Source of the DNA: Aphanomyces cochlioides
Lineage: Eukaryota > Oomycota > Saprolegniomycetes > Saprolegniales > Verrucalvaceae
Length of the DNA: 64,000 nucleotides
Assembly: GCA_019828595.1 (NCBI GenBank)
Contig: JAHQRK010000020.1
Coordinates: forward strand, 1 to 64,000
Reading direction: 5' to 3'
Shown piece by piece: positions 1-45,836 of the stretch. The first letter of the stretch is position 1. The number at the start of each line of letters is the position of its first letter. Under the pieces are notes generated by a model that was not told where the DNA came from, made no database searches, and saw only the letters and a program-made list of their open reading frames with translations. The position numbers were made by a program, and so were the translations under genes.

Positions 1-244
1 CAGCTGAAATCCATACTGCTTGGTCTGACTTGGATTGCGTCTGGGCGATCAACCTTGTTGGAGTGACACTGTCGCATCGATTGAACATGTGGGATGGAAT
101 ATTGCAAGATTTTGTAATGTTGACGATGGTAGGTCAGACGGACCATTCGAGTGTATGCTATCTTTTGAAAGTAGGAAAAAGTTGGAAGGATATAAAAAGA
201 TAGGGTTTCTCTCTGTGTAGGAGAGGAAAAAAAAAAAAAGGAAA

Positions 245-312
245 CTCCCCGTCCAAATTGAACCGGTCACCCGCGTGACAGGCGGGTATACTGACCACTA
301 TACTAACGAGGA
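245..312 (-). tRNA. tRNA-Asp(GTC) copy 1, degenerate
   Basis: The anticodon arm is intact (GTC within CCTGTCACGC), but the T arm reads CCAAATTGAACCGG instead of CCGGGAATTGAACCCGGG (plus strand), so the T stem is broken and the gene is 68 nt instead of 72. The flanking 250 bp also carry several homopolymer-type indels, so poor sequence at the window edge is as likely as a real pseudogene. Unit to its right: medium AC, GATAC+, M1=A, M2=G, M3=C, with three single-base deletions; 1316 bp to the next copy. Confidence 0.55.
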
Positions 313-1557
313 TTTCATGCTGATTTCCCTTCCCACGCAGCTCAATACCCTTCACACTTTCACACACCTTCAAAAACCACTGTTTCAGCCAATATCACTC
401 TCGCCATACCACACACACACACGCACGAAATCTTCCACACACCTCAACACAACCTCATACCTTCCTTACTTTCCCATTCACAACAATTTACACAAACTCT
501 CTATCCTTCATCAAACGAACCAGATACATTCTCCAAATACCCCACACCACGTGCACATGTGTCCTCTTTGCAAACAAACAAAACACAACTTGCTCTTCTA
601 CCAACGTCCATCTCGGACGCAGGAAGTAGTCGAATGGTACCATTTCCACGAATCGTGTTTAAACATGTCCGTCGTCCCACATCGTGAACACACCTCCATC
701 AAGAGTTGTAGCATTTGCACCGACTATAGCTCAGCATGTGTATACATTTTTAGGGGTCACCAGCAATGTATACTCATCATGATTCACGTGTATCCAATGG
801 CTTGTCGAGAATCTGCTCAGCGTGGTCGCGCGCCATATCATACGCGCCACCGTGGACTCCGTGGTCAAGTCATTTGACAGAATCCAAACCTTGCTGTCTG
901 CTATTCAGGGCAATTCGACATCGATATTGTTATCAATACTGCAATAAACATGATGCAATATCCATCACACAAATATGGGTAACGACTCATTATTTGCTCT
1001 CAAACGGAGTGACAAGACATGCTCTTCACGATGAAATGAACAAACGAGAGTGCTGTGTGTATAATTTGTTTTGACGTCGTGACATTGTCGCCTGAACTGA
1101 TGGTGTTGATTGTCCATTTTGTTTTGTTGTAGTGAGTCTGTTTCAGGTAGTTTTGAATTGGTTGTCGATGTATGGTTGCGTTTGAGGTCTCTGATGAGAA
1201 ATCTATGTTGCAATATCAAGTTGTTATCAAGTGTTGTCAAGGCTAGACTCGTCGAAATGGAAGAGGCCATCGACAGAGTGGCCTCGAAAACATCCCAACA
1301 TTCGATGCAGCCAACCAGCTGAAATCCATACTGCTTGGTCTGACTTGGATTGCGTCTTGGGCGATCAACCTTGTTGGAGTGACACTGTCGCATCGATTGA
1401 ACATGTGGGATGGAATATTGCAAGATTTGTAATGTTGACGATGGTAGGTCAGACGGACCATTCGAGTGTATGCTATCTTTTGAAAGTAGGAAAAGTTGGA
1501 AGGATATAAAAAGATAGGGTTTCTCTCTGTGTAGGAGAGGAAAAAATGAAAAAGGAA

Positions 1558-1628
1558 CTCCCGTCCGGGAATTGAACCCGGGTCACCCGCGTGACAGGCG
1601 GGTATACTGACCACTATACTAACGAGGA
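1558..1628 (-). tRNA. tRNA-Asp(GTC) copy 2, one base deleted in acceptor stem
   Basis: It matches the consensus except that the plus strand reads CTCCCG instead of CTCCCCG, so the 3' strand of the acceptor stem has one G fewer (71 nt). This would weaken or abolish function unless it is a homopolymer sequencing error. Unit to its right: medium AC, GATAC+, M1=A, M2=G, M3=C; 1319 bp to the next copy. Confidence 0.8.
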
Positions 1629-2564
1629 TTTCATGCTGATTTCCCTTCCCACGCAGCTCAATACCCTTCACACTTTCACACACCTTCAAAAAACCACTGT
1701 TTCAGCCAATATCACTCTCGCCATACCACACACACACACGCACGAAATCTTCCACACACCTCAACACAACCTCATACCTTCCTTACTTTCCCATTCACAA
1801 CAATTTACACAAACTCTCTATCCTTCATCAAACGAACCAGATACATTCTCCAAATACCCCACACCACGTGCACATGTGTCCTCTTTGCAAACAAACAAAA
1901 CACAACTTGCTCTTTCTACCAACGTCCATCTCGGACGCAGGAAGTAGTCGAATGGTACCATTTCCACGAATCGTGTTTAAACATGTCCGTCGTCCCACAT
2001 CGTGAACACACCTCCATCAAGAGTTGTAGCATTTGCACCGACTATAGCTCAGCATGTGTATACATTTTTAGGGGTCACCAGCAATGTATACTCATCATGA
2101 TTCACGTGCATCCAATGGCTTGTCGAGAATCTGCTCAGCGTGGTCGCGCGCCATATCATACGCGCCACCGTGGACTCCGTGGTCAAGTCATTTGACAGAA
2201 TCCAAACCTTGCTGTCTGCTATTCAGGGCAATTCGACATCGATATTGTTATCAATACTGCAATAAACATGATGCAATATCCATCACACAAATATGGGTAA
2301 CGACTCATTATTTGCTCTCAAACGGAGTGACAAGACATGCTCTTCACGATGAAATGAACAAACGAGAGTGCTGTGTGTATAATTTGTTTTGACGTCGTGA
2401 CATTGTCGCCTGAACTGATGGTGTTGATTGTCCATTTTGTTTTGTTGTAGTGAGTCTGTTTCAGGTAGTTTTGAATTGGTTGTCGATGTATGGTTGCGTT
2501 TGAGGTCTCTGATGAGAAATCTATGTTGCAATATCAAGTTGTTATCAAGTGTTGTCAAGGCTAG

Positions 2565-2875: not shown

Positions 2876-2947
2876 CTCCCCGTCCGGGAATTGAACCCGG
2901 GTCACCCGCGTGACAGGCGGGTATACTGACCACTATACTAACGAGGA
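2876..2947 (-). tRNA. tRNA-Asp(GTC) copy 3 (reference copy)
   Basis: This 72-nt cloverleaf has a 7-bp acceptor stem (TCCTCGT with ACGGGGA, one T-G pair), discriminator G, anticodon stem CCCGC/GCGGG around CTGTCAC with anticodon GTC, a 4-nt variable loop, and a T stem CCGGG/CCCGG around TTCAATT. Internal promoters are visible: the A box around TAGTATAGTGGTCAGTA and the B box GGTTCAATTCC. No intron and no encoded CCA. A T-run (CTTTTTC, then TTTTTT) starts within about 5 nt downstream and would terminate Pol III. It closely resembles the conserved eukaryotic cytosolic tRNA-Asp. Unit to its right: medium AC, GATAC-, M1=A, M2=G, M3=C; 1314 bp. Confidence 0.98.
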
Positions 2948-4189
2948 TTTCATGCTGATTTCCCTTCCCACGCAGCTCAATACCCTTCACACTTTCACAC
3001 ACCTTCAAAAAACCACTGTTTCAGCCAATATCACTCTCGCCATACCACACACACACACGCACGAAATCTTCCACACACCTCAACACAACCTCATACCTTC
3101 CTTACTTTCCCATTCACAACAATTTACACAAACTCTCTATCCTTCATCAAACGAACCCATTCTCCAAATACCCCACACCACGTGCACATGTGTCCTCTTT
3201 GCAAACAAACAAAACACAACTTGCTCTTTCTACCAACGTCCATCTCGGACGCAGGAAGTAGTCGAATGGTACCATTTCCACGAATCGTGTTTAAACATGT
3301 CCGTCGTCCCACATCGTGAACACACCTCCATCAAGAGTTGTAGCATTTGCACCGACTATAGCTCAGCATGTGTATACATTTTTAGGGGTCACCAGCAATG
3401 TATACTCATCATGATTCACGTGCATCCAATGGCTTGTCGAGAATCTGCTCAGCGTGGTCGCGCGCCATATCATACGCGCCACCGTGGACTCCGTGGTCAA
3501 GTCATTTGACAGAATCCAAACCTTGCTGTCTGCTATTCAGGGCAATTCGACATCGATATTGTTATCAATACTGCAATAAACATGATGCAATATCCATCAC
3601 ACAAATATGGGTAACGACTCATTATTTGCTCTCAAACGGAGTGACAAGACATGCTCTTCACGATGAAATGAACAAACGAGAGTGCTGTGTGTATAATTTG
3701 TTTTGACGTCGTGACATTGTCGCCTGAACTGATGGTGTTGATTGTCCATTTTGTTTTGTTGTAGTGAGTCTGTTTCAGGTAGTTTTGAATTGGTTGTCGA
3801 TGTATGGTTGCGTTTGAGGTCTCTGATGAGAAATCTATGTTGCAATATCAAGTTGTTATCAAGTGTTGTCAAGGCTAGACTCGTCGAAATGGAAGAGGCC
3901 ATCGACAGAGTGGCCTCGAAAACATCCCAACATTCGATGCAGCCAACCAGCTGAAATCCATACTGCTTGGTCTGACTTGGATTGCGTCTTGGGCGATCAA
4001 CCTTGTTGGAGTGACACTGTCGCATCGATTGAACATGTGGGATGGAATATTGCAAGATTTGTAATGTTGACGATGGTAGGTCAGACGGACCATTCGAGTG
4101 TATGCTATCTTTTGAAAGTAGGAAAAGTTGGAAGGATATAAAAAGATAGGGTTTCTCTCTGTGTAGGAGAGGAAAAAATGAAAAAGGAA
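2876..4189. repeat. Representative repeat unit (tRNA 3 up to tRNA 4)
   Basis: This 1314-bp unit shows the common organisation. The tRNA-Asp lies at 2876-2947 on the minus strand. A C/A-rich, T-poor strand segment follows, with an (AC)n tract near 3046-3060. Next come a CACGTG palindrome near 3180, a GC-rich short hairpin near 3456-3483 (GTGG-T-CGCG pairing with CGCG-CCAC around a loop of about 12 nt), a T/G-rich segment, and a purine-rich run (GGAAAAAATGAAAAAGG) that is the Pol III terminator region of the next tRNA when read on the minus strand. No rRNA, snRNA or second tRNA was recognised on either strand. Confidence 0.9.
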
Positions 4190-4261
4190 CTCCCCGTCCG
4201 GGAATTGAACCCGGGTCACCCGCGTGACAGGCGGGTATACTGACCACTATACTAACGAGGA
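4190..4261 (-). tRNA. tRNA-Asp(GTC) copy 4
   Basis: Intact 72-nt gene, identical to copy 3. Unit to its right: medium AC, GATAC+, M1=A, M2=G, M3=C; 1319 bp to the next copy. Confidence 0.97.
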
Positions 4262-5508
4262 TTTCATGCTGATTTCCCTTCCCACGCAGCTCAATACCCT
4301 TCACACTTTCACACACCTTCAAAAAACCACTGTTTCAGCCAATATCACTCTCGCCATACCACACACACACACGCACGAAATCTTCCACACACCTCAACAC
4401 AACCTCATACCTTCCTTACTTTCCCATTCACAACAATTTACACAAACTCTCTATCCTTCATCAAACGAACCAGATACATTCTCCAAATACCCCACACCAC
4501 GTGCACATGTGTCCTCTTTGCAAACAAACAAAACACAACTTGCTCTTTCTACCAACGTCCATCTCGGACGCAGGAAGTAGTCGAATGGTACCATTTCCAC
4601 GAATCGTGTTTAAACATGTCCGTCGTCCCACATCGTGAACACACCTCCATCAAGAGTTGTAGCATTTGCACCGACTATAGCTCAGCATGTGTATACATTT
4701 TTAGGGGTCACCAGCAATGTATACTCATCATGATTCACGTGCATCCAATGGCTTGTCGAGAATCTGCTCAGCGTGGTCGCGCGCCATATCATACGCGCCA
4801 CCGTGGACTCCGTGGTCAAGTCATTTGACAGAATCCAAACCTTGCTGTCTGCTATTCAGGGCAATTCGACATCGATATTGTTATCAATACTGCAATAAAC
4901 ATGATGCAATATCCATCACACAAATATGGGTAACGACTCATTATTTGCTCTCAAACGGAGTGACAAGACATGCTCTTCACGATGAAATGAACAAACGAGA
5001 GTGCTGTGTGTATAATTTGTTTTGACGTCGTGACATTGTCGCCTGAACTGATGGTGTTGATTGTCCATTTTGTTTTGTTGTAGTGAGTCTGTTTCAGGTA
5101 GTTTTGAATTGGTTGTCGATGTATGGTTGCGTTTGAGGTCTCTGATGAGAAATCTATGTTGCAATATCAAGTTGTTATCAAGTGTTGTCAAGGCTAGACT
5201 CGTCGAAATGGAAGAGGCCATCGACAGAGTGGCCTCGAAAACATCCCAACATTCGATGCAGCCAACCAGCTGAAATCCATACTGCTTGGTCTGACTTGGA
5301 TTGCGTCTTGGGCGATCAACCTTGTTGGAGTGACACTGTCGCATCGATTGAACATGTGGGATGGAATATTGCAAGATTTGTAATGTTGACGATGGTAGGT
5401 CAGACGGACCATTCGAGTGTATGCTATCTTTTGAAAGTAGGAAAAGTTGGAAGGATATAAAAAGATAGGGTTTCTCTCTGTGTAGGAGAGGAAAAAATGA
5501 AAAAGGAA

Positions 5509-5580
5509 CTCCCCGTCCGGGAATTGAACCCGGGTCACCCGCGTGACAGGCGGGTATACTGACCACTATACTAACGAGGA
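5509..5580 (-). tRNA. tRNA-Asp(GTC) copy 5
   Basis: Intact 72-nt gene. Unit to its right: medium AC, GATAC-, M1=A, M2=G, M3=C; 1314 bp. Confidence 0.97.
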
Positions 5581-6822
5581 TTTCATGCTGATTTCCCTTC
5601 CCACGCAGCTCAATACCCTTCACACTTTCACACACCTTCAAAAAACCACTGTTTCAGCCAATATCACTCTCGCCATACCACACACACACACGCACGAAAT
5701 CTTCCACACACCTCAACACAACCTCATACCTTCCTTACTTTCCCATTCACAACAATTTACACAAACTCTCTATCCTTCATCAAACGAACCCATTCTCCAA
5801 ATACCCCACACCACGTGCACATGTGTCCTCTTTGCAAACAAACAAAACACAACTTGCTCTTTCTACCAACGTCCATCTCGGACGCAGGAAGTAGTCGAAT
5901 GGTACCATTTCCACGAATCGTGTTTAAACATGTCCGTCGTCCCACATCGTGAACACACCTCCATCAAGAGTTGTAGCATTTGCACCGACTATAGCTCAGC
6001 ATGTGTATACATTTTTAGGGGTCACCAGCAATGTATACTCATCATGATTCACGTGCATCCAATGGCTTGTCGAGAATCTGCTCAGCGTGGTCGCGCGCCA
6101 TATCATACGCGCCACCGTGGACTCCGTGGTCAAGTCATTTGACAGAATCCAAACCTTGCTGTCTGCTATTCAGGGCAATTCGACATCGATATTGTTATCA
6201 ATACTGCAATAAACATGATGCAATATCCATCACACAAATATGGGTAACGACTCATTATTTGCTCTCAAACGGAGTGACAAGACATGCTCTTCACGATGAA
6301 ATGAACAAACGAGAGTGCTGTGTGTATAATTTGTTTTGACGTCGTGACATTGTCGCCTGAACTGATGGTGTTGATTGTCCATTTTGTTTTGTTGTAGTGA
6401 GTCTGTTTCAGGTAGTTTTGAATTGGTTGTCGATGTATGGTTGCGTTTGAGGTCTCTGATGAGAAATCTATGTTGCAATATCAAGTTGTTATCAAGTGTT
6501 GTCAAGGCTAGACTCGTCGAAATGGAAGAGGCCATCGACAGAGTGGCCTCGAAAACATCCCAACATTCGATGCAGCCAACCAGCTGAAATCCATACTGCT
6601 TGGTCTGACTTGGATTGCGTCTTGGGCGATCAACCTTGTTGGAGTGACACTGTCGCATCGATTGAACATGTGGGATGGAATATTGCAAGATTTGTAATGT
6701 TGACGATGGTAGGTCAGACGGACCATTCGAGTGTATGCTATCTTTTGAAAGTAGGAAAAGTTGGAAGGATATAAAAAGATAGGGTTTCTCTCTGTGTAGG
6801 AGAGGAAAAAATGAAAAAGGAA

Positions 6823-6894
6823 CTCCCCGTCCGGGAATTGAACCCGGGTCACCCGCGTGACAGGCGGGTATACTGACCACTATACTAACGAGGA
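6823..6894 (-). tRNA. tRNA-Asp(GTC) copy 6
   Basis: Intact 72-nt gene. Unit to its right: medium AC, GATAC+, M1=A, M2=G, M3=C, with one G lost from GAGAGGAAAAAA just before the next tRNA; 1318 bp. Confidence 0.97.
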
Positions 6895-8140
6895 TTTCAT
6901 GCTGATTTCCCTTCCCACGCAGCTCAATACCCTTCACACTTTCACACACCTTCAAAAAACCACTGTTTCAGCCAATATCACTCTCGCCATACCACACACA
7001 CACACGCACGAAATCTTCCACACACCTCAACACAACCTCATACCTTCCTTACTTTCCCATTCACAACAATTTACACAAACTCTCTATCCTTCATCAAACG
7101 AACCAGATACATTCTCCAAATACCCCACACCACGTGCACATGTGTCCTCTTTGCAAACAAACAAAACACAACTTGCTCTTTCTACCAACGTCCATCTCGG
7201 ACGCAGGAAGTAGTCGAATGGTACCATTTCCACGAATCGTGTTTAAACATGTCCGTCGTCCCACATCGTGAACACACCTCCATCAAGAGTTGTAGCATTT
7301 GCACCGACTATAGCTCAGCATGTGTATACATTTTTAGGGGTCACCAGCAATGTATACTCATCATGATTCACGTGCATCCAATGGCTTGTCGAGAATCTGC
7401 TCAGCGTGGTCGCGCGCCATATCATACGCGCCACCGTGGACTCCGTGGTCAAGTCATTTGACAGAATCCAAACCTTGCTGTCTGCTATTCAGGGCAATTC
7501 GACATCGATATTGTTATCAATACTGCAATAAACATGATGCAATATCCATCACACAAATATGGGTAACGACTCATTATTTGCTCTCAAACGGAGTGACAAG
7601 ACATGCTCTTCACGATGAAATGAACAAACGAGAGTGCTGTGTGTATAATTTGTTTTGACGTCGTGACATTGTCGCCTGAACTGATGGTGTTGATTGTCCA
7701 TTTTGTTTTGTTGTAGTGAGTCTGTTTCAGGTAGTTTTGAATTGGTTGTCGATGTATGGTTGCGTTTGAGGTCTCTGATGAGAAATCTATGTTGCAATAT
7801 CAAGTTGTTATCAAGTGTTGTCAAGGCTAGACTCGTCGAAATGGAAGAGGCCATCGACAGAGTGGCCTCGAAAACATCCCAACATTCGATGCAGCCAACC
7901 AGCTGAAATCCATACTGCTTGGTCTGACTTGGATTGCGTCTTGGGCGATCAACCTTGTTGGAGTGACACTGTCGCATCGATTGAACATGTGGGATGGAAT
8001 ATTGCAAGATTTGTAATGTTGACGATGGTAGGTCAGACGGACCATTCGAGTGTATGCTATCTTTTGAAAGTAGGAAAAGTTGGAAGGATATAAAAAGATA
8101 GGGTTTCTCTCTGTGTAGGAGAGAAAAAATGAAAAAGGAA

Positions 8141-8212
8141 CTCCCCGTCCGGGAATTGAACCCGGGTCACCCGCGTGACAGGCGGGTATACTGACCACTA
8201 TACTAACGAGGA
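8141..8212 (-). tRNA. tRNA-Asp(GTC) copy 7
   Basis: Intact 72-nt gene; its downstream flank carries the single-G deletion noted for the preceding unit. Unit to its right: medium AC, GATAC+, M1=A, M2=G, M3=C; 1318 bp. Confidence 0.97.
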
Positions 8213-9459
8213 TTTCATGCTGATTTCCCTTCCCACGCAGCTCAATACCCTTCACACTTTCACACACCTTCAAAAAACCACTGTTTCAGCCAATATCACT
8301 CTCGCCATACCACACACACACACGCACGAAATCTTCCACACACCTCAACACAACCTCATACCTTCCTTACTTTCCCATTCACAACAATTTACACAAACTC
8401 TCTATCCTTCATCAAACGAACCAGATACATTCTCCAAATACCCCACACCACGTGCACATGTGTCCTCTTTGCAAACAAACAAAACACAACTTGCTCTTTC
8501 TACCAACGTCCATCTCGGACGCAGGAAGTAGTCGAATGGTACCATTTCCACGAATCGTGTTTAAACATGTCCGTCGTCCCACATCGTGAACACACCTCCA
8601 TCAAGAGTTGTAGCATTTGCACCGACTATAGCTCAGCATGTGTATACATTTTTAGGGGTCACCAGCAATGTATACTCATCATGATTCACGTGCATCCAAT
8701 GGCTTGTCGAGAATCTGCTCAGCGTGGTCGCGCGCCATATCATACGCGCCACCGTGGACTCCGTGGTCAAGTCATTTGACAGAATCCAAACCTTGCTGTC
8801 TGCTATTCAGGGCAATTCGACATCGATATTGTTATCAATACTGCAATAAACATGATGCAATATCCATCACACAAATATGGGTAACGACTCATTATTTGCT
8901 CTCAAACGGAGTGACAAGACATGCTCTTCACGATGAAATGAACAAACGAGAGTGCTGTGTGTATAATTTGTTTTGACGTCGTGACATTGTCGCCTGAACT
9001 GATGGTGTTGATTGTCCATTTTGTTTTGTTGTAGTGAGTCTGTTTCAGGTAGTTTTGAATTGGTTGTCGATGTATGGTTGCGTTTGAGGTCTCTGATGAG
9101 AAATCTATGTTGCAATATCAAGTTGTTATCAAGTGTTGTCAAGGCTAGACTCGTCGAAATGGAAGAGGCCATCGACAGAGTGGCCTCGAAAACATCCCAA
9201 CATTCGATGCAGCCAACCAGCTGAAATCCATACTGCTTGGTCTGACTTGGATTGCGTCTTGGGCGATCAACCTTGTTGGAGTGACACTGTCGCATCGATT
9301 GAACATGTGGGATGGAATATTGCAAGATTTGTAATGTTGACGATGGTAGGTCAGACGGACCATTCGAGTGTATGCTATCTTTTGAAAGTAGGAAAAGTTG
9401 GAAGGATATAAAAAGATAGGGTTTCTCTCTGTGTAGGAGAGGAAAAAATGAAAAAGGAA

Positions 9460-9530
9460 CTCCCGTCCGGGAATTGAACCCGGGTCACCCGCGTGACAGG
9501 CGGGTATACTGACCACTATACTAACGAGGA
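9460..9530 (-). tRNA. tRNA-Asp(GTC) copy 8, one base deleted in acceptor stem
   Basis: It carries the same C-run shortening as copy 2 (CTCCCG on the plus strand), giving 71 nt and a disrupted acceptor stem. Sharing this lesion with copy 2 could reflect sequence transfer within the array or a recurrent homopolymer error. Unit to its right: medium AC, GATAC+, M1=A, M2=G, M3=C; 1319 bp. Confidence 0.8.
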
Positions 9531-10777
9531 TTTCATGCTGATTTCCCTTCCCACGCAGCTCAATACCCTTCACACTTTCACACACCTTCAAAAAACCACT
9601 GTTTCAGCCAATATCACTCTCGCCATACCACACACACACACGCACGAAATCTTCCACACACCTCAACACAACCTCATACCTTCCTTACTTTCCCATTCAC
9701 AACAATTTACACAAACTCTCTATCCTTCATCAAACGAACCAGATACATTCTCCAAATACCCCACACCACGTGCACATGTGTCCTCTTTGCAAACAAACAA
9801 AACACAACTTGCTCTTTCTACCAACGTCCATCTCGGACGCAGGAAGTAGTCGAATGGTACCATTTCCACGAATCGTGTTTAAACATGTCCGTCGTCCCAC
9901 ATCGTGAACACACCTCCATCAAGAGTTGTAGCATTTGCACCGACTATAGCTCAGCATGTGTATACATTTTTAGGGGTCACCAGCAATGTATACTCATCAT
10001 GATTCACGTGCATCCAATGGCTTGTCGAGAATCTGCTCAGCGTGGTCGCGCGCCATATCATACGCGCCACCGTGGACTCCGTGGTCAAGTCATTTGACAG
10101 AATCCAAACCTTGCTGTCTGCTATTCAGGGCAATTCGACATCGATATTGTTATCAATACTGCAATAAACATGATGCAATATCCATCACACAAATATGGGT
10201 AACGACTCATTATTTGCTCTCAAACGGAGTGACAAGACATGCTCTTCACGATGAAATGAACAAACGAGAGTGCTGTGTGTATAATTTGTTTTGACGTCGT
10301 GACATTGTCGCCTGAACTGATGGTGTTGATTGTCCATTTTGTTTTGTTGTAGTGAGTCTGTTTCAGGTAGTTTTGAATTGGTTGTCGATGTATGGTTGCG
10401 TTTGAGGTCTCTGATGAGAAATCTATGTTGCAATATCAAGTTGTTATCAAGTGTTGTCAAGGCTAGACTCGTCGAAATGGAAGAGGCCATCGACAGAGTG
10501 GCCTCGAAAACATCCCAACATTCGATGCAGCCAACCAGCTGAAATCCATACTGCTTGGTCTGACTTGGATTGCGTCTTGGGCGATCAACCTTGTTGGAGT
10601 GACACTGTCGCATCGATTGAACATGTGGGATGGAATATTGCAAGATTTGTAATGTTGACGATGGTAGGTCAGACGGACCATTCGAGTGTATGCTATCTTT
10701 TGAAAGTAGGAAAAGTTGGAAGGATATAAAAAGATAGGGTTTCTCTCTGTGTAGGAGAGGAAAAAATGAAAAAGGAA

Positions 10778-10849
10778 CTCCCCGTCCGGGAATTGAACCC
10801 GGGTCACCCGCGTGACAGGCGGGTATACTGACCACTATACTAACGAGGA
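10778..10849 (-). tRNA. tRNA-Asp(GTC) copy 9
   Basis: Intact 72-nt gene. Unit to its right: medium AC, GATAC+, M1=A, M2=C (the first C from the left), M3=C, plus a private CCCCTTCAC variant near 11011; 1319 bp. Confidence 0.97.
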
Positions 10850-12096: not shown

Positions 12097-12168
12097 CTCC
12101 CCGTCCGGGAATTGAACCCGGGTCACCCGCGTGACAGGCGGGTATACTGACCACTATACTAACGAGGA
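12097..12168 (-). tRNA. tRNA-Asp(GTC) copy 10
   Basis: Intact 72-nt gene. Unit to its right: medium AC, GATAC+, M1=A, M2=G, M3=C; 1319 bp. Confidence 0.97.
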
Positions 12169-33174: not shown

Positions 33175-33246
33175 CTCCCCGTCCGGGAATTGAACCCGGG
33201 TCACCCGCGTGACAGGCGGGTATACTGACCACTATACTAACGAGGA
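33175..33246 (-). tRNA. tRNA-Asp(GTC) copy 26
   Basis: Intact 72-nt gene. Unit to its right: long AC, GATAC+, M1=C, M2=C, M3=C; 1321 bp. Confidence 0.97.
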
Positions 33247-34495: not shown

Positions 34496-34567
34496 CTCCC
34501 CGTCCGGGAATTGAACCCGGGTCACCCGCGTGACAGGCGGGTATACTGACCACTATACTAACGAGGA
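34496..34567 (-). tRNA. tRNA-Asp(GTC) copy 27
   Basis: Intact 72-nt gene. Unit to its right: medium AC, GATAC-, M1=C, M2=C, M3=C, with a private T (CCTTATACC near 34711); 1314 bp. Confidence 0.97.
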
Positions 34568-35809
34568 TTTCATGCTGATTTCCCTTCCCACGCAGCTCAA
34601 TACCCTTCACACTTTCACACACCTTCAAAAAACCACTGTTTCAGCCAATATCACTCTCGCCATACCACACACACACACGCACGAAATCTTCCACACACCT
34701 CAACACAACCTTATACCTTCCTTACTTTCCCATTCACAACAATTTACACAAACTCTCTATCCTTCATCAAACGAACCCATTCTCCAAATACCCCACACCA
34801 CGTGCACATGTGTCCTCTTTGCAAACAAACAAAACACAACTTGCTCTTTCTACCAACGTCCATCTCGGACGCAGGAAGTAGTCGAATGGTACCATTTCCA
34901 CGAATCGTGTTTAAACATGTCCGTCGTCCCACATCGTGAACACACCTCCATCAAGAGTTGTAGCATTTGCACCGACTATAGCTCAGCATGTGTATACATT
35001 TTTAGGGGTCACCAGCAATGTATACTCATCATGATTCACGTGCATCCAATGGCTTGTCGAGAATCTGCTCAGCGTGGTCGCGCGCCATATCATACGCGCC
35101 ACCGTGGACTCCGTGGTCAAGTCATTTGACAGAATCCAAACCTTGCTGTCTGCTATTCAGGGCAATTCGACATCGATATTGTTATCAATACTGCAATAAA
35201 CATGATGCAATATCCATCACACCAATATGGGTAACGACTCATTATTTGCTCTCAAACGGAGTGACAAGACATGCTCTTCACGATGAAATGAACAAACGAG
35301 AGTGCTGTGTGTATAATTTGTTTTGACGTCGTGACATTGTCGCCTGAACTGATGGTGTTGATTGTCCATTTTGTTTTGTTGTAGTGAGTCTGTTTCAGGT
35401 AGTTTTGAATTGGTTGTCGATGTATGGTTGCGTTTGAGGTCTCTGATGAGAAATCTATGTTGCAATATCAAGTTGTTATCAAGTCTTGTCAAGGCTAGAC
35501 TCGTCGAAATGGAAGAGGCCATCGACAGAGTGGCCTCGAAAACATCCCAACATTCGATGCAGCCAACCAGCTGAAATCCATACTGCTTGGTCTGACTTGG
35601 ATTGCGTCTTGGGCGATCAACCTTGTTGGAGTGACACTGTCGCATCGATTGAACATGTGGGATGGAATATTGCAAGATTTGTAATGTTGACGATGGTAGG
35701 TCAGACGGACCATTCGAGTGTATGCTATCTTTTGAAAGTAGGAAAAGTTGGAAGGATATAAAAAGATAGGGTTTCTCTCTGTGTAGGAGAGGAAAAAATG
35801 AAAAAGGAA

Positions 35810-35881
35810 CTCCCCGTCCGGGAATTGAACCCGGGTCACCCGCGTGACAGGCGGGTATACTGACCACTATACTAACGAGGA
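35810..35881 (-). tRNA. tRNA-Asp(GTC) copy 28
   Basis: Intact 72-nt gene. Unit to its right: long AC, GATAC+, M1=C, M2=C, M3=C; 1321 bp. Confidence 0.97.
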
Positions 35882-37130
35882 TTTCATGCTGATTTCCCTT
35901 CCCACGCAGCTCAATACCCTTCACACTTTCACACACCTTCAAAAAACCACTGTTTCAGCCAATATCACTCTCGCCATACCACACACACACACACGCACGA
36001 AATCTTCCACACACCTCAACACAACCTCATACCTTCCTTACTTTCCCATTCACAACAATTTACACAAACTCTCTATCCTTCATCAAACGAACCAGATACA
36101 TTCTCCAAATACCCCACACCACGTGCACATGTGTCCTCTTTGCAAACAAACAAAACACAACTTGCTCTTTCTACCAACGTCCATCTCGGACGCAGGAAGT
36201 AGTCGAATGGTACCATTTCCACGAATCGTGTTTAAACATGTCCGTCGTCCCACATCGTGAACACACCTCCATCAAGAGTTGTAGCATTTGCACCGACTAT
36301 AGCTCAGCATGTGTATACATTTTTAGGGGTCACCAGCAATGTATACTCATCATGATTCACGTGCATCCAATGGCTTGTCGAGAATCTGCTCAGCGTGGTC
36401 GCGCGCCATATCATACGCGCCACCGTGGACTCCGTGGTCAAGTCATTTGACAGAATCCAAACCTTGCTGTCTGCTATTCAGGGCAATTCGACATCGATAT
36501 TGTTATCAATACTGCAATAAACATGATGCAATATCCATCACACCAATATGGGTAACGACTCATTATTTGCTCTCAAACGGAGTGACAAGACATGCTCTTC
36601 ACGATGAAATGAACAAACGAGAGTGCTGTGTGTATAATTTGTTTTGACGTCGTGACATTGTCGCCTGAACTGATGGTGTTGATTGTCCATTTTGTTTTGT
36701 TGTAGTGAGTCTGTTTCAGGTAGTTTTGAATTGGTTGTCGATGTATGGTTGCGTTTGAGGTCTCTGATGAGAAATCTATGTTGCAATATCAAGTTGTTAT
36801 CAAGTCTTGTCAAGGCTAGACTCGTCGAAATGGAAGAGGCCATCGACAGAGTGGCCTCGAAAACATCCCAACATTCGATGCAGCCAACCAGCTGAAATCC
36901 ATACTGCTTGGTCTGACTTGGATTGCGTCTTGGGCGATCAACCTTGTTGGAGTGACACTGTCGCATCGATTGAACATGTGGGATGGAATATTGCAAGATT
37001 TGTAATGTTGACGATGGTAGGTCAGACGGACCATTCGAGTGTATGCTATCTTTTGAAAGTAGGAAAAGTTGGAAGGATATAAAAAGATAGGGTTTCTCTC
37101 TGTGTAGGAGAGGAAAAAATGAAAAAGGAA

Positions 37131-37202
37131 CTCCCCGTCCGGGAATTGAACCCGGGTCACCCGCGTGACAGGCGGGTATACTGACCACTATACTAACGAG
37201 GA
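37131..37202 (-). tRNA. tRNA-Asp(GTC) copy 29
   Basis: Intact 72-nt gene. Unit to its right: long AC, GATAC+, M1=A, M2=C, M3=C; 1321 bp. This marker combination repeats in units 30 and 31. Confidence 0.97.
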
Positions 37203-38451
37203 TTTCATGCTGATTTCCCTTCCCACGCAGCTCAATACCCTTCACACTTTCACACACCTTCAAAAAACCACTGTTTCAGCCAATATCACTCTCGCCATAC
37301 CACACACACACACACGCACGAAATCTTCCACACACCTCAACACAACCTCATACCTTCCTTACTTTCCCATTCACAACAATTTACACAAACTCTCTATCCT
37401 TCATCAAACGAACCAGATACATTCTCCAAATACCCCACACCACGTGCACATGTGTCCTCTTTGCAAACAAACAAAACACAACTTGCTCTTTCTACCAACG
37501 TCCATCTCGGACGCAGGAAGTAGTCGAATGGTACCATTTCCACGAATCGTGTTTAAACATGTCCGTCGTCCCACATCGTGAACACACCTCCATCAAGAGT
37601 TGTAGCATTTGCACCGACTATAGCTCAGCATGTGTATACATTTTTAGGGGTCACCAGCAATGTATACTCATCATGATTCACGTGCATCCAATGGCTTGTC
37701 GAGAATCTGCTCAGCGTGGTCGCGCGCCATATCATACGCGCCACCGTGGACTCCGTGGTCAAGTCATTTGACAGAATCCAAACCTTGCTGTCTGCTATTC
37801 AGGGCAATTCGACATCGATATTGTTATCAATACTGCAATAAACATGATGCAATATCCATCACACAAATATGGGTAACGACTCATTATTTGCTCTCAAACG
37901 GAGTGACAAGACATGCTCTTCACGATGAAATGAACAAACGAGAGTGCTGTGTGTATAATTTGTTTTGACGTCGTGACATTGTCGCCTGAACTGATGGTGT
38001 TGATTGTCCATTTTGTTTTGTTGTAGTGAGTCTGTTTCAGGTAGTTTTGAATTGGTTGTCGATGTATGGTTGCGTTTGAGGTCTCTGATGAGAAATCTAT
38101 GTTGCAATATCAAGTTGTTATCAAGTCTTGTCAAGGCTAGACTCGTCGAAATGGAAGAGGCCATCGACAGAGTGGCCTCGAAAACATCCCAACATTCGAT
38201 GCAGCCAACCAGCTGAAATCCATACTGCTTGGTCTGACTTGGATTGCGTCTTGGGCGATCAACCTTGTTGGAGTGACACTGTCGCATCGATTGAACATGT
38301 GGGATGGAATATTGCAAGATTTGTAATGTTGACGATGGTAGGTCAGACGGACCATTCGAGTGTATGCTATCTTTTGAAAGTAGGAAAAGTTGGAAGGATA
38401 TAAAAAGATAGGGTTTCTCTCTGTGTAGGAGAGGAAAAAATGAAAAAGGAA

Positions 38452-38523
38452 CTCCCCGTCCGGGAATTGAACCCGGGTCACCCGCGTGACAGGCGGGTAT
38501 ACTGACCACTATACTAACGAGGA
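38452..38523 (-). tRNA. tRNA-Asp(GTC) copy 30
   Basis: Intact 72-nt gene. Unit to its right: long AC, GATAC+, M1=A, M2=C, M3=C; 1321 bp. Confidence 0.97.
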
Positions 38524-39772
38524 TTTCATGCTGATTTCCCTTCCCACGCAGCTCAATACCCTTCACACTTTCACACACCTTCAAAAAACCACTGTTTCAG
38601 CCAATATCACTCTCGCCATACCACACACACACACACGCACGAAATCTTCCACACACCTCAACACAACCTCATACCTTCCTTACTTTCCCATTCACAACAA
38701 TTTACACAAACTCTCTATCCTTCATCAAACGAACCAGATACATTCTCCAAATACCCCACACCACGTGCACATGTGTCCTCTTTGCAAACAAACAAAACAC
38801 AACTTGCTCTTTCTACCAACGTCCATCTCGGACGCAGGAAGTAGTCGAATGGTACCATTTCCACGAATCGTGTTTAAACATGTCCGTCGTCCCACATCGT
38901 GAACACACCTCCATCAAGAGTTGTAGCATTTGCACCGACTATAGCTCAGCATGTGTATACATTTTTAGGGGTCACCAGCAATGTATACTCATCATGATTC
39001 ACGTGCATCCAATGGCTTGTCGAGAATCTGCTCAGCGTGGTCGCGCGCCATATCATACGCGCCACCGTGGACTCCGTGGTCAAGTCATTTGACAGAATCC
39101 AAACCTTGCTGTCTGCTATTCAGGGCAATTCGACATCGATATTGTTATCAATACTGCAATAAACATGATGCAATATCCATCACACAAATATGGGTAACGA
39201 CTCATTATTTGCTCTCAAACGGAGTGACAAGACATGCTCTTCACGATGAAATGAACAAACGAGAGTGCTGTGTGTATAATTTGTTTTGACGTCGTGACAT
39301 TGTCGCCTGAACTGATGGTGTTGATTGTCCATTTTGTTTTGTTGTAGTGAGTCTGTTTCAGGTAGTTTTGAATTGGTTGTCGATGTATGGTTGCGTTTGA
39401 GGTCTCTGATGAGAAATCTATGTTGCAATATCAAGTTGTTATCAAGTCTTGTCAAGGCTAGACTCGTCGAAATGGAAGAGGCCATCGACAGAGTGGCCTC
39501 GAAAACATCCCAACATTCGATGCAGCCAACCAGCTGAAATCCATACTGCTTGGTCTGACTTGGATTGCGTCTTGGGCGATCAACCTTGTTGGAGTGACAC
39601 TGTCGCATCGATTGAACATGTGGGATGGAATATTGCAAGATTTGTAATGTTGACGATGGTAGGTCAGACGGACCATTCGAGTGTATGCTATCTTTTGAAA
39701 GTAGGAAAAGTTGGAAGGATATAAAAAGATAGGGTTTCTCTCTGTGTAGGAGAGGAAAAAATGAAAAAGGAA

Positions 39773-39844
39773 CTCCCCGTCCGGGAATTGAACCCGGGTC
39801 ACCCGCGTGACAGGCGGGTATACTGACCACTATACTAACGAGGA
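39773..39844 (-). tRNA. tRNA-Asp(GTC) copy 31
   Basis: Intact 72-nt gene. Unit to its right: long AC, GATAC+, M1=A, M2=C, M3=C, with a private ATAGGTAACG variant near 40513; 1321 bp. Confidence 0.97.
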
Positions 39845-41093
39845 TTTCATGCTGATTTCCCTTCCCACGCAGCTCAATACCCTTCACACTTTCACACACC
39901 TTCAAAAAACCACTGTTTCAGCCAATATCACTCTCGCCATACCACACACACACACACGCACGAAATCTTCCACACACCTCAACACAACCTCATACCTTCC
40001 TTACTTTCCCATTCACAACAATTTACACAAACTCTCTATCCTTCATCAAACGAACCAGATACATTCTCCAAATACCCCACACCACGTGCACATGTGTCCT
40101 CTTTGCAAACAAACAAAACACAACTTGCTCTTTCTACCAACGTCCATCTCGGACGCAGGAAGTAGTCGAATGGTACCATTTCCACGAATCGTGTTTAAAC
40201 ATGTCCGTCGTCCCACATCGTGAACACACCTCCATCAAGAGTTGTAGCATTTGCACCGACTATAGCTCAGCATGTGTATACATTTTTAGGGGTCACCAGC
40301 AATGTATACTCATCATGATTCACGTGCATCCAATGGCTTGTCGAGAATCTGCTCAGCGTGGTCGCGCGCCATATCATACGCGCCACCGTGGACTCCGTGG
40401 TCAAGTCATTTGACAGAATCCAAACCTTGCTGTCTGCTATTCAGGGCAATTCGACATCGATATTGTTATCAATACTGCAATAAACATGATGCAATATCCA
40501 TCACACAAATATAGGTAACGACTCATTATTTGCTCTCAAACGGAGTGACAAGACATGCTCTTCACGATGAAATGAACAAACGAGAGTGCTGTGTGTATAA
40601 TTTGTTTTGACGTCGTGACATTGTCGCCTGAACTGATGGTGTTGATTGTCCATTTTGTTTTGTTGTAGTGAGTCTGTTTCAGGTAGTTTTGAATTGGTTG
40701 TCGATGTATGGTTGCGTTTGAGGTCTCTGATGAGAAATCTATGTTGCAATATCAAGTTGTTATCAAGTCTTGTCAAGGCTAGACTCGTCGAAATGGAAGA
40801 GGCCATCGACAGAGTGGCCTCGAAAACATCCCAACATTCGATGCAGCCAACCAGCTGAAATCCATACTGCTTGGTCTGACTTGGATTGCGTCTTGGGCGA
40901 TCAACCTTGTTGGAGTGACACTGTCGCATCGATTGAACATGTGGGATGGAATATTGCAAGATTTGTAATGTTGACGATGGTAGGTCAGACGGACCATTCG
41001 AGTGTATGCTATCTTTTGAAAGTAGGAAAAGTTGGAAGGATATAAAAAGATAGGGTTTCTCTCTGTGTAGGAGAGGAAAAAATGAAAAAGGAA

Positions 41094-41165
41094 CTCCCCG
41101 TCCGGGAATTGAACCCGGGTCACCCGCGTGACAGGCGGGTATACTGACCACTATACTAACGAGGA
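41094..41165 (-). tRNA. tRNA-Asp(GTC) copy 32
   Basis: Intact 72-nt gene. Unit to its right is the first with a short AC tract: GATAC-, M1=C, M2=C, M3=C; 1312 bp. Confidence 0.97.
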
Positions 41166-42405
41166 TTTCATGCTGATTTCCCTTCCCACGCAGCTCAATA
41201 CCCTTCACACTTTCACACACCTTCAAAAAACCACTGTTTCAGCCAATATCACTCTCGCCATACCACACACACACGCACGAAATCTTCCACACACCTCAAC
41301 ACAACCTCATACCTTCCTTACTTTCCCATTCACAACAATTTACACAAACTCTCTATCCTTCATCAAACGAACCCATTCTCCAAATACCCCACACCACGTG
41401 CACATGTGTCCTCTTTGCAAACAAACAAAACACAACTTGCTCTTTCTACCAACGTCCATCTCGGACGCAGGAAGTAGTCGAATGGTACCATTTCCACGAA
41501 TCGTGTTTAAACATGTCCGTCGTCCCACATCGTGAACACACCTCCATCAAGAGTTGTAGCATTTGCACCGACTATAGCTCAGCATGTGTATACATTTTTA
41601 GGGGTCACCAGCAATGTATACTCATCATGATTCACGTGCATCCAATGGCTTGTCGAGAATCTGCTCAGCGTGGTCGCGCGCCATATCATACGCGCCACCG
41701 TGGACTCCGTGGTCAAGTCATTTGACAGAATCCAAACCTTGCTGTCTGCTATTCAGGGCAATTCGACATCGATATTGTTATCAATACTGCAATAAACATG
41801 ATGCAATATCCATCACACCAATATGGGTAACGACTCATTATTTGCTCTCAAACGGAGTGACAAGACATGCTCTTCACGATGAAATGAACAAACGAGAGTG
41901 CTGTGTGTATAATTTGTTTTGACGTCGTGACATTGTCGCCTGAACTGATGGTGTTGATTGTCCATTTTGTTTTGTTGTAGTGAGTCTGTTTCAGGTAGTT
42001 TTGAATTGGTTGTCGATGTATGGTTGCGTTTGAGGTCTCTGATGAGAAATCTATGTTGCAATATCAAGTTGTTATCAAGTCTTGTCAAGGCTAGACTCGT
42101 CGAAATGGAAGAGGCCATCGACAGAGTGGCCTCGAAAACATCCCAACATTCGATGCAGCCAACCAGCTGAAATCCATACTGCTTGGTCTGACTTGGATTG
42201 CGTCTTGGGCGATCAACCTTGTTGGAGTGACACTGTCGCATCGATTGAACATGTGGGATGGAATATTGCAAGATTTGTAATGTTGACGATGGTAGGTCAG
42301 ACGGACCATTCGAGTGTATGCTATCTTTTGAAAGTAGGAAAAGTTGGAAGGATATAAAAAGATAGGGTTTCTCTCTGTGTAGGAGAGGAAAAAATGAAAA
42401 AGGAA

Positions 42406-42477
42406 CTCCCCGTCCGGGAATTGAACCCGGGTCACCCGCGTGACAGGCGGGTATACTGACCACTATACTAACGAGGA
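42406..42477 (-). tRNA. tRNA-Asp(GTC) copy 33
   Basis: Intact 72-nt gene. Unit to its right: long AC, GATAC+, M1=C, M2=C, M3=C; 1321 bp. Confidence 0.97.
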
Positions 42478-43726
42478 TTTCATGCTGATTTCCCTTCCCA
42501 CGCAGCTCAATACCCTTCACACTTTCACACACCTTCAAAAAACCACTGTTTCAGCCAATATCACTCTCGCCATACCACACACACACACACGCACGAAATC
42601 TTCCACACACCTCAACACAACCTCATACCTTCCTTACTTTCCCATTCACAACAATTTACACAAACTCTCTATCCTTCATCAAACGAACCAGATACATTCT
42701 CCAAATACCCCACACCACGTGCACATGTGTCCTCTTTGCAAACAAACAAAACACAACTTGCTCTTTCTACCAACGTCCATCTCGGACGCAGGAAGTAGTC
42801 GAATGGTACCATTTCCACGAATCGTGTTTAAACATGTCCGTCGTCCCACATCGTGAACACACCTCCATCAAGAGTTGTAGCATTTGCACCGACTATAGCT
42901 CAGCATGTGTATACATTTTTAGGGGTCACCAGCAATGTATACTCATCATGATTCACGTGCATCCAATGGCTTGTCGAGAATCTGCTCAGCGTGGTCGCGC
43001 GCCATATCATACGCGCCACCGTGGACTCCGTGGTCAAGTCATTTGACAGAATCCAAACCTTGCTGTCTGCTATTCAGGGCAATTCGACATCGATATTGTT
43101 ATCAATACTGCAATAAACATGATGCAATATCCATCACACCAATATGGGTAACGACTCATTATTTGCTCTCAAACGGAGTGACAAGACATGCTCTTCACGA
43201 TGAAATGAACAAACGAGAGTGCTGTGTGTATAATTTGTTTTGACGTCGTGACATTGTCGCCTGAACTGATGGTGTTGATTGTCCATTTTGTTTTGTTGTA
43301 GTGAGTCTGTTTCAGGTAGTTTTGAATTGGTTGTCGATGTATGGTTGCGTTTGAGGTCTCTGATGAGAAATCTATGTTGCAATATCAAGTTGTTATCAAG
43401 TCTTGTCAAGGCTAGACTCGTCGAAATGGAAGAGGCCATCGACAGAGTGGCCTCGAAAACATCCCAACATTCGATGCAGCCAACCAGCTGAAATCCATAC
43501 TGCTTGGTCTGACTTGGATTGCGTCTTGGGCGATCAACCTTGTTGGAGTGACACTGTCGCATCGATTGAACATGTGGGATGGAATATTGCAAGATTTGTA
43601 ATGTTGACGATGGTAGGTCAGACGGACCATTCGAGTGTATGCTATCTTTTGAAAGTAGGAAAAGTTGGAAGGATATAAAAAGATAGGGTTTCTCTCTGTG
43701 TAGGAGAGGAAAAAATGAAAAAGGAA

Positions 43727-43798
43727 CTCCCCGTCCGGGAATTGAACCCGGGTCACCCGCGTGACAGGCGGGTATACTGACCACTATACTAACGAGGA
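43727..43798 (-). tRNA. tRNA-Asp(GTC) copy 34
   Basis: Intact 72-nt gene. Unit to its right: medium AC, GATAC+, M1=C, M2=C, M3=C, a 6-nt deletion near 44198 (GTTGTTGCACC) and one G lost near 44841; 1312 bp. Confidence 0.97.
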
Positions 43799-45038
43799 TT
43801 TCATGCTGATTTCCCTTCCCACGCAGCTCAATACCCTTCACACTTTCACACACCTTCAAAAAACCACTGTTTCAGCCAATATCACTCTCGCCATACCACA
43901 CACACACACGCACGAAATCTTCCACACACCTCAACACAACCTCATACCTTCCTTACTTTCCCATTCACAACAATTTACACAAACTCTCTATCCTTCATCA
44001 AACGAACCAGATACATTCTCCAAATACCCCACACCACGTGCACATGTGTCCTCTTTGCAAACAAACAAAACACAACTTGCTCTTTCTACCAACGTCCATC
44101 TCGGACGCAGGAAGTAGTCGAATGGTACCATTTCCACGAATCGTGTTTAAACATGTCCGTCGTCCCACATCGTGAACACACCTCCATCAAGAGTTGTTGC
44201 ACCGACTATAGCTCAGCATGTGTATACATTTTTAGGGGTCACCAGCAATGTATACTCATCATGATTCACGTGCATCCAATGGCTTGTCGAGAATCTGCTC
44301 AGCGTGGTCGCGCGCCATATCATACGCGCCACCGTGGACTCCGTGGTCAAGTCATTTGACAGAATCCAAACCTTGCTGTCTGCTATTCAGGGCAATTCGA
44401 CATCGATATTGTTATCAATACTGCAATAAACATGATGCAATATCCATCACACCAATATGGGTAACGACTCATTATTTGCTCTCAAACGGAGTGACAAGAC
44501 ATGCTCTTCACGATGAAATGAACAAACGAGAGTGCTGTGTGTATAATTTGTTTTGACGTCGTGACATTGTCGCCTGAACTGATGGTGTTGATTGTCCATT
44601 TTGTTTTGTTGTAGTGAGTCTGTTTCAGGTAGTTTTGAATTGGTTGTCGATGTATGGTTGCGTTTGAGGTCTCTGATGAGAAATCTATGTTGCAATATCA
44701 AGTTGTTATCAAGTCTTGTCAAGGCTAGACTCGTCGAAATGGAAGAGGCCATCGACAGAGTGGCCTCGAAAACATCCCAACATTCGATGCAGCCAACCAG
44801 CTGAAATCCATACTGCTTGGTCTGACTTGGATTGCGTCTTGGCGATCAACCTTGTTGGAGTGACACTGTCGCATCGATTGAACATGTGGGATGGAATATT
44901 GCAAGATTTGTAATGTTGACGATGGTAGGTCAGACGGACCATTCGAGTGTATGCTATCTTTTGAAAGTAGGAAAAGTTGGAAGGATATAAAAAGATAGGG
45001 TTTCTCTCTGTGTAGGAGAGGAAAAAATGAAAAAGGAA

Positions 45039-45110
45039 CTCCCCGTCCGGGAATTGAACCCGGGTCACCCGCGTGACAGGCGGGTATACTGACCACTATA
45101 CTAACGAGGA
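45039..45110 (-). tRNA. tRNA-Asp(GTC) copy 35, last in the array
   Basis: Intact 72-nt gene with the usual downstream T-run. The unit to its right is partial (ends at 45836): short AC, GATAC-, the same 6-nt deletion as the unit before it (near 45503), and M1=A. Confidence 0.97.
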
Positions 45111-45836
45111 TTTCATGCTGATTTCCCTTCCCACGCAGCTCAATACCCTTCACACTTTCACACACCTTCAAAAAACCACTGTTTCAGCCAATATCACTCT
45201 CGCCATACCACACACACACGCACGAAATCTTCCACACACCTCAACACAACCTCATACCTTCCTTACTTTCCCATTCACAACAATTTACACAAACTCTCTA
45301 TCCTTCATCAAACGAACCCATTCTCCAAATACCCCACACCACGTGCACATGTGTCCTCTTTGCAAACAAACAAAACACAACTTGCTCTTTCTACCAACGT
45401 CCATCTCGGACGCAGGAAGTAGTCGAATGGTACCATTTCCACGAATCGTGTTTAAACATGTCCGTCGTCCCACATCGTGAACACACCTCCATCAAGAGTT
45501 GTTGCACCGACTATAGCTCAGCATGTGTATACATTTTTAGGGGTCACCAGCAATGTATACTCATCATGATTCACGTGCATCCAATGGCTTGTCGAGAATC
45601 TGCTCAGCGTGGTCGCGCGCCATATCATACGCGCCACCGTGGACTCCGTGGTCAAGTCATTTGACAGAATCCAAACCTTGCTGTCTGCTATTCAGGGCAA
45701 TTCGACATCGATATTGTTATCAATACTGCAATAAACATGATGCAATATCCATCACACAAATATGGGTAACGACTCATTATTTGCTCTCAAACGGAGTGAC
45801 AAGACATGCTCTTCACGATGAAATGAACAAACGAGA

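What the first reader, a model, noticed from the sequence alone, without database searches (positions are those of the whole stretch)
1..45836. A mega-array of 35 tRNA-Asp(GTC) genes in 1.3-kb tandem units
Over 45 kb consists of head-to-tail units each carrying one tRNA-Asp with intact A and B boxes and a Pol III T-run terminator, all in one orientation. Tandem tRNA arrays are documented for Entamoeba, but a single-isoacceptor array with long unique spacers of this size in an oomycete-like genome is unusual. It could meet tRNA dosage needs, act as a chromatin boundary or satellite, or be a by-product of amplification.
Basis: partly seen in the sequence, partly recalled or inferred. Interest (0 to 1): 0.85.

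Follow-up and report, generated by a model that had tools for sequence, protein, structure and literature searches.

The report
tRNA-Asp array invaded by tRNA-targeting retrotransposon
A water mould keeps its aspartate tRNA genes as long rows of near-identical copies, as relatives are known to do, and the same rows turn out to be the landing site of a jumping element that inserts into the middle of tRNA genes.

Summary
The array is real: window 1-45836 holds 35 tRNA-Asp(GTC) genes, all on the minus strand, in 1312-1322-bp units. 32 are identical; 3 have small defects. The window is the start of contig C13 of a 76.2-Mb genome, nearest Aphanomyces. The array also fills the end of C9 and contig C60: 124 tRNA-Asp matches in all, with an orientation switch. 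It is not exceptional there: Ala-AGC (209 gene halves), Val-GAC (216), Thr-AGT (65) and Asn (85) are also arrayed, and the same organisation is published for Phytophthora infestans. The array itself is a new member of a known kind.

The unexpected part is on the C9 side. Two independent insertions of a non-LTR retrotransposon lie inside tRNA-Asp genes, with 15-16-bp target-site duplications over the anticodon arm. Of its 40 best-scoring 3' ends (138 candidates), 37 join the 3' half of a tRNA (Asp, Val, Ala, Thr) or 5S rRNA gene. A full-length copy is 9231 bp with an L1-like ORF2. The non-LTR elements tabulated in a 2018 review insert beside, not inside, tRNA genes.

The parts
1..45836 (-). Tandem array of 35 tRNA-Asp(GTC) units of about 1.3 kb; cut off at the contig start, ends at 45836
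245..312 (-). First tRNA-Asp copy, damaged (several bases missing), next to the contig start
   Evidence: not scored by Rfam
1554..1629 (-). tRNA-Asp copy lacking one G of the 3' acceptor run
9456..9531 (-). tRNA-Asp copy lacking one G of the 3' acceptor run
2876..45110 (-). Stretch that holds the 32 identical tRNA-Asp genes (the copy at 9456-9531 lies among them)
45039..45110 (-). Last tRNA-Asp gene, as an example: A box about 45093-45103, anticodon GTC 45075-45077, B box about 45050-45060 (box motifs recalled, positions counted by hand)
45022..45034 (-). T runs just 3' of that gene (T5 and T6 on the minus strand), Pol III terminator-like
   Evidence: read from the unit sequence
45066..45083 (-). 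tRNA nt 28-45 of that gene: the empty equivalent of the stretch duplicated by the two C9 insertions; all 35 window genes are without insert
   Evidence: unit lengths; target-site duplications
45837..64000 (.). Unique flank without tRNA genes; open frames with ankyrin (55240-56788), TIR (56844-57320), DUF4215 (58810-60174) and tyrosinase (61141-61734) domains, plus strand

Best explanation
The window is one end of a large tRNA-Asp(GTC) locus of an Aphanomyces-like oomycete, probably its main or only nuclear source of this tRNA. Shown: near-identical 1.3-kb units, each with a tRNA gene and terminator-like T runs; continuation on contigs C9 and C60; clustered unit variants; an internal inversion. 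Inferred: each unit is transcribed by Pol III from its own A and B boxes, and unequal exchange or gene conversion spreads and homogenises the units, so that copy number drifts above need. The array is one of several isoacceptor arrays in this genome, and such arrays are the home of one L1-like non-LTR retrotransposon, which inserts in the sense orientation into the anticodon arm of tRNA genes (and into 5S rRNA genes) and duplicates 14-18 bp. Spare copies let disrupted genes persist, and the exchange that homogenises an array also multiplies disrupted units. The insertion pattern is shown; target-primed reverse transcription is inferred from the constant 3' end, the differing 5' truncation and the duplications; the safe-haven reading is inferred.
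For: 35 genes in 34 measured units, 19 distinct unit sequences. Six variant sites in 14 combinations; adjacent units differ less than in any of 10000 shuffles, 45 against a mean of 75.7, sd 6.8. 124 matches to the 72-nt gene at up to 3 mismatches, reversed control 0; the 100 listed are all on C9, C13 and C60. The orientation-switch junction is present on both C9 and C60. Other arrays in this genome: Asn, Val-GAC, Thr-AGT, Ala-AGC. Published parallel in P. infestans. Retrotransposon: two insertions with 16- and 15-bp duplications in tRNA-Asp; 37 of 40 junctions read in tRNA or 5S genes; identical 5' ends at a Thr and a Val gene with duplications of 18 and 14-15 bp; intact Thr, Val and Ala-AGC neighbours; L1-like ORF2. 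Element-bearing Asp units recur at 7639, 7643, 7639 and 7640 bp.
Against: No transcription, read-depth or chromatin data. No insertion lies in the window's own 35 units. 24 of the 124 Asp matches were not listed, and Asp genes with more than 3 mismatches were not searched. Only the 40 best-scoring of 138 candidate 3' ends were examined, which favours young copies. 3 of the 40 (L060, L072, L084) are not in a recognised Pol III gene. Copies within an array are not independent events. Pfam found no endonuclease domain at 1e-3 in the query ORF itself; it is inferred from alignment to LINE-1 ORF2p and from relatives that carry PF03372.
Confidence: 0.85

Rival explanations
1. Assembly artefact: a few real units were multiplied by the assembler.
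For: The window starts at a contig end, where the first unit is error-laden; the last bases of C9 also look error-laden.
Against: 19 distinct units of 34, six multi-copy variant sites with local clustering, 0 of 10000 shuffles as low; insertions, composite units and an inversion junction found on two contigs.
Confidence: 0.04
2. Dosage: the array is kept this large because the cell needs that much tRNA-Asp.
For: 32 of 35 window genes are identical, as expected if selection or homogenisation keeps them working.
Against: Identity extends to the spacer (0.44% mean difference), so it needs no selection on the gene. Other isoacceptors have similar or larger counts. In P. infestans copy number and codon use correlate only modestly, R = 0.41.
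Confidence: 0.2
3. Structural role: the array works as chromatin boundary or organiser, or as satellite, and the tRNA product is secondary.
For: A human tRNA tandem repeat at 1q23.3 is proposed as a boundary element (PMC4041453, start of abstract only); the P. infestans authors raise nuclear organisation as a question.
Against: No chromatin data here; nothing but tRNA and weak tRNA-like overlaps found by Rfam in a unit.
Confidence: 0.1
4. For the retrotransposon: insertion is not target-specific; a few chance insertions into tRNA arrays were multiplied by array exchange.
For: Many copies lie in arrays, and copies within one array are not independent.
Against: At least seven different genes are hit: Asp, Val-GAC, three Ala types, Thr-AGT, 5S. 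The tRNA hits are all in the anticodon arm and in sense; two independent Asp hits lie within 3 nt. Spacings in the Val and Thr arrays imply several insert lengths.
Confidence: 0.05

Closest known systems
Tandem tRNA gene arrays of Phytophthora infestans (PMC9584435, passages)
   Same: Oomycete; many same-gene arrays; near-identical units within monomeric arrays; variants in groups; unequal crossing-over proposed.
   Different: Here a 1.3-kb unit for tRNA-Asp, an inversion, and retrotransposon insertions inside the genes; none of the latter is mentioned in the passages I read.
Entamoeba tRNA arrays (PMC2652664, start of abstract)
   Same: tRNA genes in tandem arrays in a protist.
   Different: There units hold up to 5 tRNA genes with complex short tandem repeats between them; here one gene and a long spacer with only trivial repeats.
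Dada DNA transposons (PMC3706591, PMC8869645, passages)
   Same: Insert at the anticodon arm of tRNA genes, also in tRNA-Asp, and in 5S genes.
   Different: DDE transposase, 6-7-bp duplications, opposite orientation at the anticodon arm; ours is a reverse-transcriptase element with 14-18-bp duplications in sense.
TRE5/TRE3 and NLTR-A/B of dictyostelids (PMC5911963, table rows and passages)
   Same: L1-type non-LTR elements that target tRNA genes.
   Different: They insert upstream or downstream of the gene, not inside it.
Target-specific non-LTR elements Mutsu (5S), Keno (U2), Dewa (tRNA-Leu spacer) and Utopia (U2, also in oomycetes) (PMC3706591 passages; PMC4640811 first part)
   Same: Sequence-specific insertion into or next to multicopy RNA genes.
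   Different: Other target sites; none of those named in what I read hits the tRNA anticodon arm. Clade of our element not determined.

Membership tests
Oomycete same-gene tRNA tandem array | One tRNA gene per unit, head to tail, near-identical units | tested here: met
Oomycete same-gene tRNA tandem array | Several tRNA families arrayed in the same genome | tested here: met
Oomycete same-gene tRNA tandem array | Sequence variants occur in groups | tested here: met
   0 of 10000 shuffles as low
Oomycete same-gene tRNA tandem array | Copy number borne out by read depth | not testable with these tools
   no reads at hand
Entamoeba-type tRNA array | Complex short tandem repeats between genes | tested here: not met
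   over 42459-45836 only repeats of about 2 copies and a short CA run
Non-LTR retrotransposon, L1-like | Reverse transcriptase ORF closest to LINE-1 ORF2p | tested here: met
   RVT_1 7.3e-39; LINE-1 ORF2p 6.5e-66, R2 1.7e-26
Non-LTR retrotransposon, L1-like | Target-site duplications and 5' truncation with a constant 3' end | tested here: met
Non-LTR retrotransposon, L1-like | Apurinic-type endonuclease domain | tested here: inconclusive
   no Pfam match at 1e-3 in the query; alignment to ORF2p from its residue 93; PF03372 in relatives
Tx1 clade | Placement in an RT tree | not tested
   no reference set at hand
Dada DNA transposon | 6-7-bp target-site duplication | tested here: not met
   duplications of 14-18 bp and a reverse transcriptase ORF

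The most novel reading that the evidence does not exclude
The element and the arrays depend on each other. An L1-like retrotransposon whose endonuclease cuts the anticodon arm of several tRNA genes and 5S genes breaks the arrays, and repair by unequal exchange enlarges and homogenises them, as R2 is reported to maintain Drosophila rDNA. This would help explain why oomycete tRNA arrays are so large and so loosely related to codon use.
Probability: 0.15. Interest if true: 0.85.

Novelty: new variant of a known kind. Interest (0 to 1): 0.55.

Why it matters
The array adds a tRNA-Asp case with 1.3-kb units to the oomycete tRNA arrays already in print, and shows that the assembly breaks inside such arrays (C9, C13 and C60 end in this one), so tRNA copy numbers are lower bounds. 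The retrotransposon matters more: a LINE that lands in the middle of tRNA genes of several isoacceptors, and in 5S genes, has a target site that I found for no non-LTR element in the papers searched. It shows how spare copies in a homogenised array let a gene-breaking parasite persist, and it offers a second system, besides R2 in rDNA, in which to test whether site-specific retrotransposons help to maintain repeated gene arrays.

Tried and rejected
Hidden second gene in the unit: Rfam at E<=1 over one unit gave only the two tRNAs and weak tRNA-like overlaps. Open frames of up to 245 codons exist in the unit; not tested further, as the units vary too little for a coding test. Short tandem repeats: none at score 200 over the window; only trivial ones at score 30 over two and a half units. 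tRNA genes on C46 were set aside: its Ala, Lys and Met genes are AT-rich and look mitochondrial, which is inference. The first-look number of 5429 tRNA candidates is not used as a count. Literature: on tRNA arrays in Aphanomyces, searches showed nothing beyond the P. infestans paper, whose survey includes A. cochlioides (listings; passages). On a LINE inside tRNA genes, searches showed none (listings, plus passages of four papers); the library holds open-licence papers only, and Repbase could not be searched, so a database-only family is possible. Val, Thr and Ala-AGC targets are backed by intact genes; the Ala CGC and TGC types are read by eye from gene halves; 5S rests on one Rfam match below its cut-off. 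Rfam did not score the tRNA halves as tRNA.
Full report
What is there. ARAGORN finds 35 tRNA-Asp(GTC) genes in the window, all on the minus strand, from 245 to 45110; Rfam scores 34 of them above its cut-off. Cut at a fixed anchor in the tRNA, the 34 consecutive units measure 1312-1322 bp and form 19 distinct sequences. The repeat ends at 45836. 32 of 35 tRNA genes are identical; two lack one G in the acceptor run and the first is damaged. The damaged first unit sits at the contig start.

Is it an artefact? Six variant sites with at least two copies of the rarer form occur in 14 combinations among the 34 units. Neighbouring units are more alike than chance: 45 differences against a shuffle mean of 75.7 (sd 6.8), 0 of 10000 shuffles as low. 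An assembler repeating one unit would not give this; unequal exchange and gene conversion would. Read depth could not be tested.

Where it lies. The window is C13:1-64000 of a 76.2-Mb genome in 94 contigs. The 72-nt tRNA-Asp sequence at up to 3 mismatches occurs 124 times (36 forward, 88 reverse; reversed control 0). The 100 listed places are C9 49, C13 32, C60 19; 24 are not listed, and spacing suggests that about 22 of these fit the rest of C60 (arithmetic by hand). On C9 the array runs from about 1624800 to the contig end at 1719595, genes first forward, then reverse from 1697089. C60 (54,863 bp) has three forward genes, then reverse ones, and both its fetched ends are array. The two switch junctions are 99.97% identical over 3295 bp in opposite orientation, and the two arms of the inversion differ from each other (3 mismatches and 1 gap over 1581 bp), which speaks against a read-folding artefact. 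The reverse genes at the C9 end and the C13 start agree in orientation, so C9-C13 is the simplest join; C60 may be an allelic or alternative copy of the junction region. The joined locus would be about 140 kb. At one site all 13 C9 units read have T and 33 of 34 C13 units have C; the exception is the first full C13 unit. That fits one locus but does not prove it.

Organism. The best hit of a flanking protein is Aphanomyces astaci at 70% identity, and the retrotransposon has relatives in A. euteiches and A. astaci. The species is not established.

Not exceptional. In the same genome: Asn-GTT 85 matches; Thr-AGT 65 gene halves, with 55 of 64 intervals at 648-649 bp, beginning 1.1 kb from the start of C78; Val-GAC 216 gene halves, 99 of the 100 listed on C15; Ala-AGC 209 gene halves, 98 of the 100 listed on C24; Val-CAC/Thr-CGT pairs on C2 (L048). 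A B-box pattern occurs 2334 times against 580 for its reversed control. The P. infestans chromosome assembly reports the same organisation (PMC9584435, passages): 7,519 tRNA genes on chromosomes, about 64% part of same-gene arrays, agreement with read depth, correlation with codon use R = 0.41, unequal crossing-over proposed. Large tRNA clusters are known more widely (PMC2888827, passages). The array is therefore a new member of a known kind.

The unexpected part. Two intervals read in full on C9 are too long, 2978 and 6320 bp. Both are insertions inside tRNA-Asp genes. Insert 1 (about 1.64 kb) is flanked by a 16-bp duplication of tRNA nt 28-43, insert 2 (about 4.99 kb) by a 15-bp duplication of nt 31-45. 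They share 99.3% identity over insert 1 and the same 3' end, so they are independent, differently truncated insertions of one element; a further copy of insert 2 starts at the same tRNA position. A search with its last 700 bases gave 40 full-length matches, the 40 scored of 138 first-look candidates. All 40 junctions were read (38): Asp 5, Val-GAC 13, Ala-AGC 9, Ala-CGC type 5, Ala-TGC type 2, Thr-AGT 1, 5S rRNA 2, other 3 (L060, L072, L084). So 37 of 40 join Pol III genes. In the tRNA cases the join is in the anticodon arm and the element lies in the sense of the gene. In all 40 the element end ...CTCAGTTAA is followed by CC, which may belong to the target or to the element. The 5S call rests on an Rfam match of 34.3 bits, under the cut-off of 38, for L056, and on the same sequence in L059. 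These are not 40 events: array exchange multiplied many of them. The scored copies are the best matches, so older or diverged copies may behave otherwise.

Full-length copies. At a Thr gene on C78 and a Val gene on C15 the element's 5' ends are identical over 262 bp and follow the tRNA 5' half directly; the duplications are 18 bp and 14-15 bp. Intact neighbouring genes read as Thr(agt) and Val(gac); two intact Ala genes from C24 read as agc. The C78 copy spans 9231 bp. Spacings that imply inserts of about 9.24 kb recur in the Thr and Val arrays, beside others that would fit truncated copies (the insert content of most intervals was not read). The C78 copy holds an open frame of 1371 codons, stop to stop, with a reverse transcriptase domain. 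Its closest solved relative is human LINE-1 ORF2p (6.5e-66), ahead of R2 (1.7e-26). Pfam shows no endonuclease in it at 1e-3; the alignment to ORF2p begins at its residue 93, inside the endonuclease, and relatives carry PF03372. 69 homologues reach 1e-30: the nearest at 93% has no name; the next ten are 37-45% identical, the named ones from A. euteiches and A. astaci.

How it works. Shown: gene and element structure, insertion site, duplications, and recurrence of element-bearing Asp units at 7639, 7643, 7639 and 7640 bp, with tRNA-Asp halves at each 3' end read. Inferred: Pol III transcription of each unit; target-primed reverse transcription with a site-preferring endonuclease; redundancy as the reason why broken genes are tolerated; exchange as the motor of both homogeneity and the spread of broken units. 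Not shown: any benefit to the host, or any role of the element in array growth. For the latter R2 in Drosophila rDNA is a precedent (PMC10266012, listing and start of abstract). Against it: all 35 window genes are unoccupied and still arrayed, and none of the 40 examined copies lies in the Asn array.

Known relatives. A review of Pol III-targeting retrotransposons (PMC5911963, passages and the table rows shown) places its four non-LTR entries upstream or downstream of the tRNA gene. Dada DNA transposons hit the anticodon arm and 5S genes, with 6-7-bp duplications and opposite orientation (PMC3706591, PMC8869645, passages). Mutsu (5S), Keno (U2) and Dewa (tRNA-Leu spacer) are named; Utopia, also in oomycetes, hits U2 (PMC4640811, first of five parts). 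I found no non-LTR element inside tRNA genes in the searches, which cover open-licence papers only.

Verdict. Observation confirmed and extended. The array alone would rate about 0.3. The tRNA-gene-inserting retrotransposon in the same locus raises the whole to 0.55, as a new variant of a known kind (target-specific non-LTR element).

Noticed in passing
L045 (C9:1694301-1697700), L046 (C60:3201-6600): Inverted junction inside the tRNA-Asp array with a 131-bp asymmetric spacer, present on both contigs at 99.97% identity in opposite orientation.
   Followed up: partly
L011, L012, L089 (C9), L090 and L091 (C78), L094 (C15): L1-like non-LTR retrotransposon inserted in the anticodon arm of tRNA genes; one 9231-bp copy with an open 1371-codon frame.
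   Followed up: yes
L060 (C28), L072 (C23), L084 (C13): Three copies of that element whose 3' flank is no recognised Pol III gene; L072 shows repeated element-tail sequence, as if nested.
   Followed up: no
G000 C23 and C36: tRNA-Asn genes often in opposite-strand pairs about 1 kb apart, unlike the head-to-tail Asp array.
   Followed up: no
G000 C24: tRNA-Ala-AGC array that changes orientation and unit length (about 1204, 832 and 664 bp) along the contig; some units carry a tRNA-His-like gene right behind.
   Followed up: no
window 58810-61737 (+): DUF4215 repeats next to a tyrosinase domain; apart from a partial A. astaci protein, many of the named DUF4215 relatives listed are bacterial, so horizontal transfer is possible.
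   Followed up: no
window 55240-57320 (+): Ankyrin repeats and a TIR domain in neighbouring open frames, perhaps exons of one gene.
   Followed up: no
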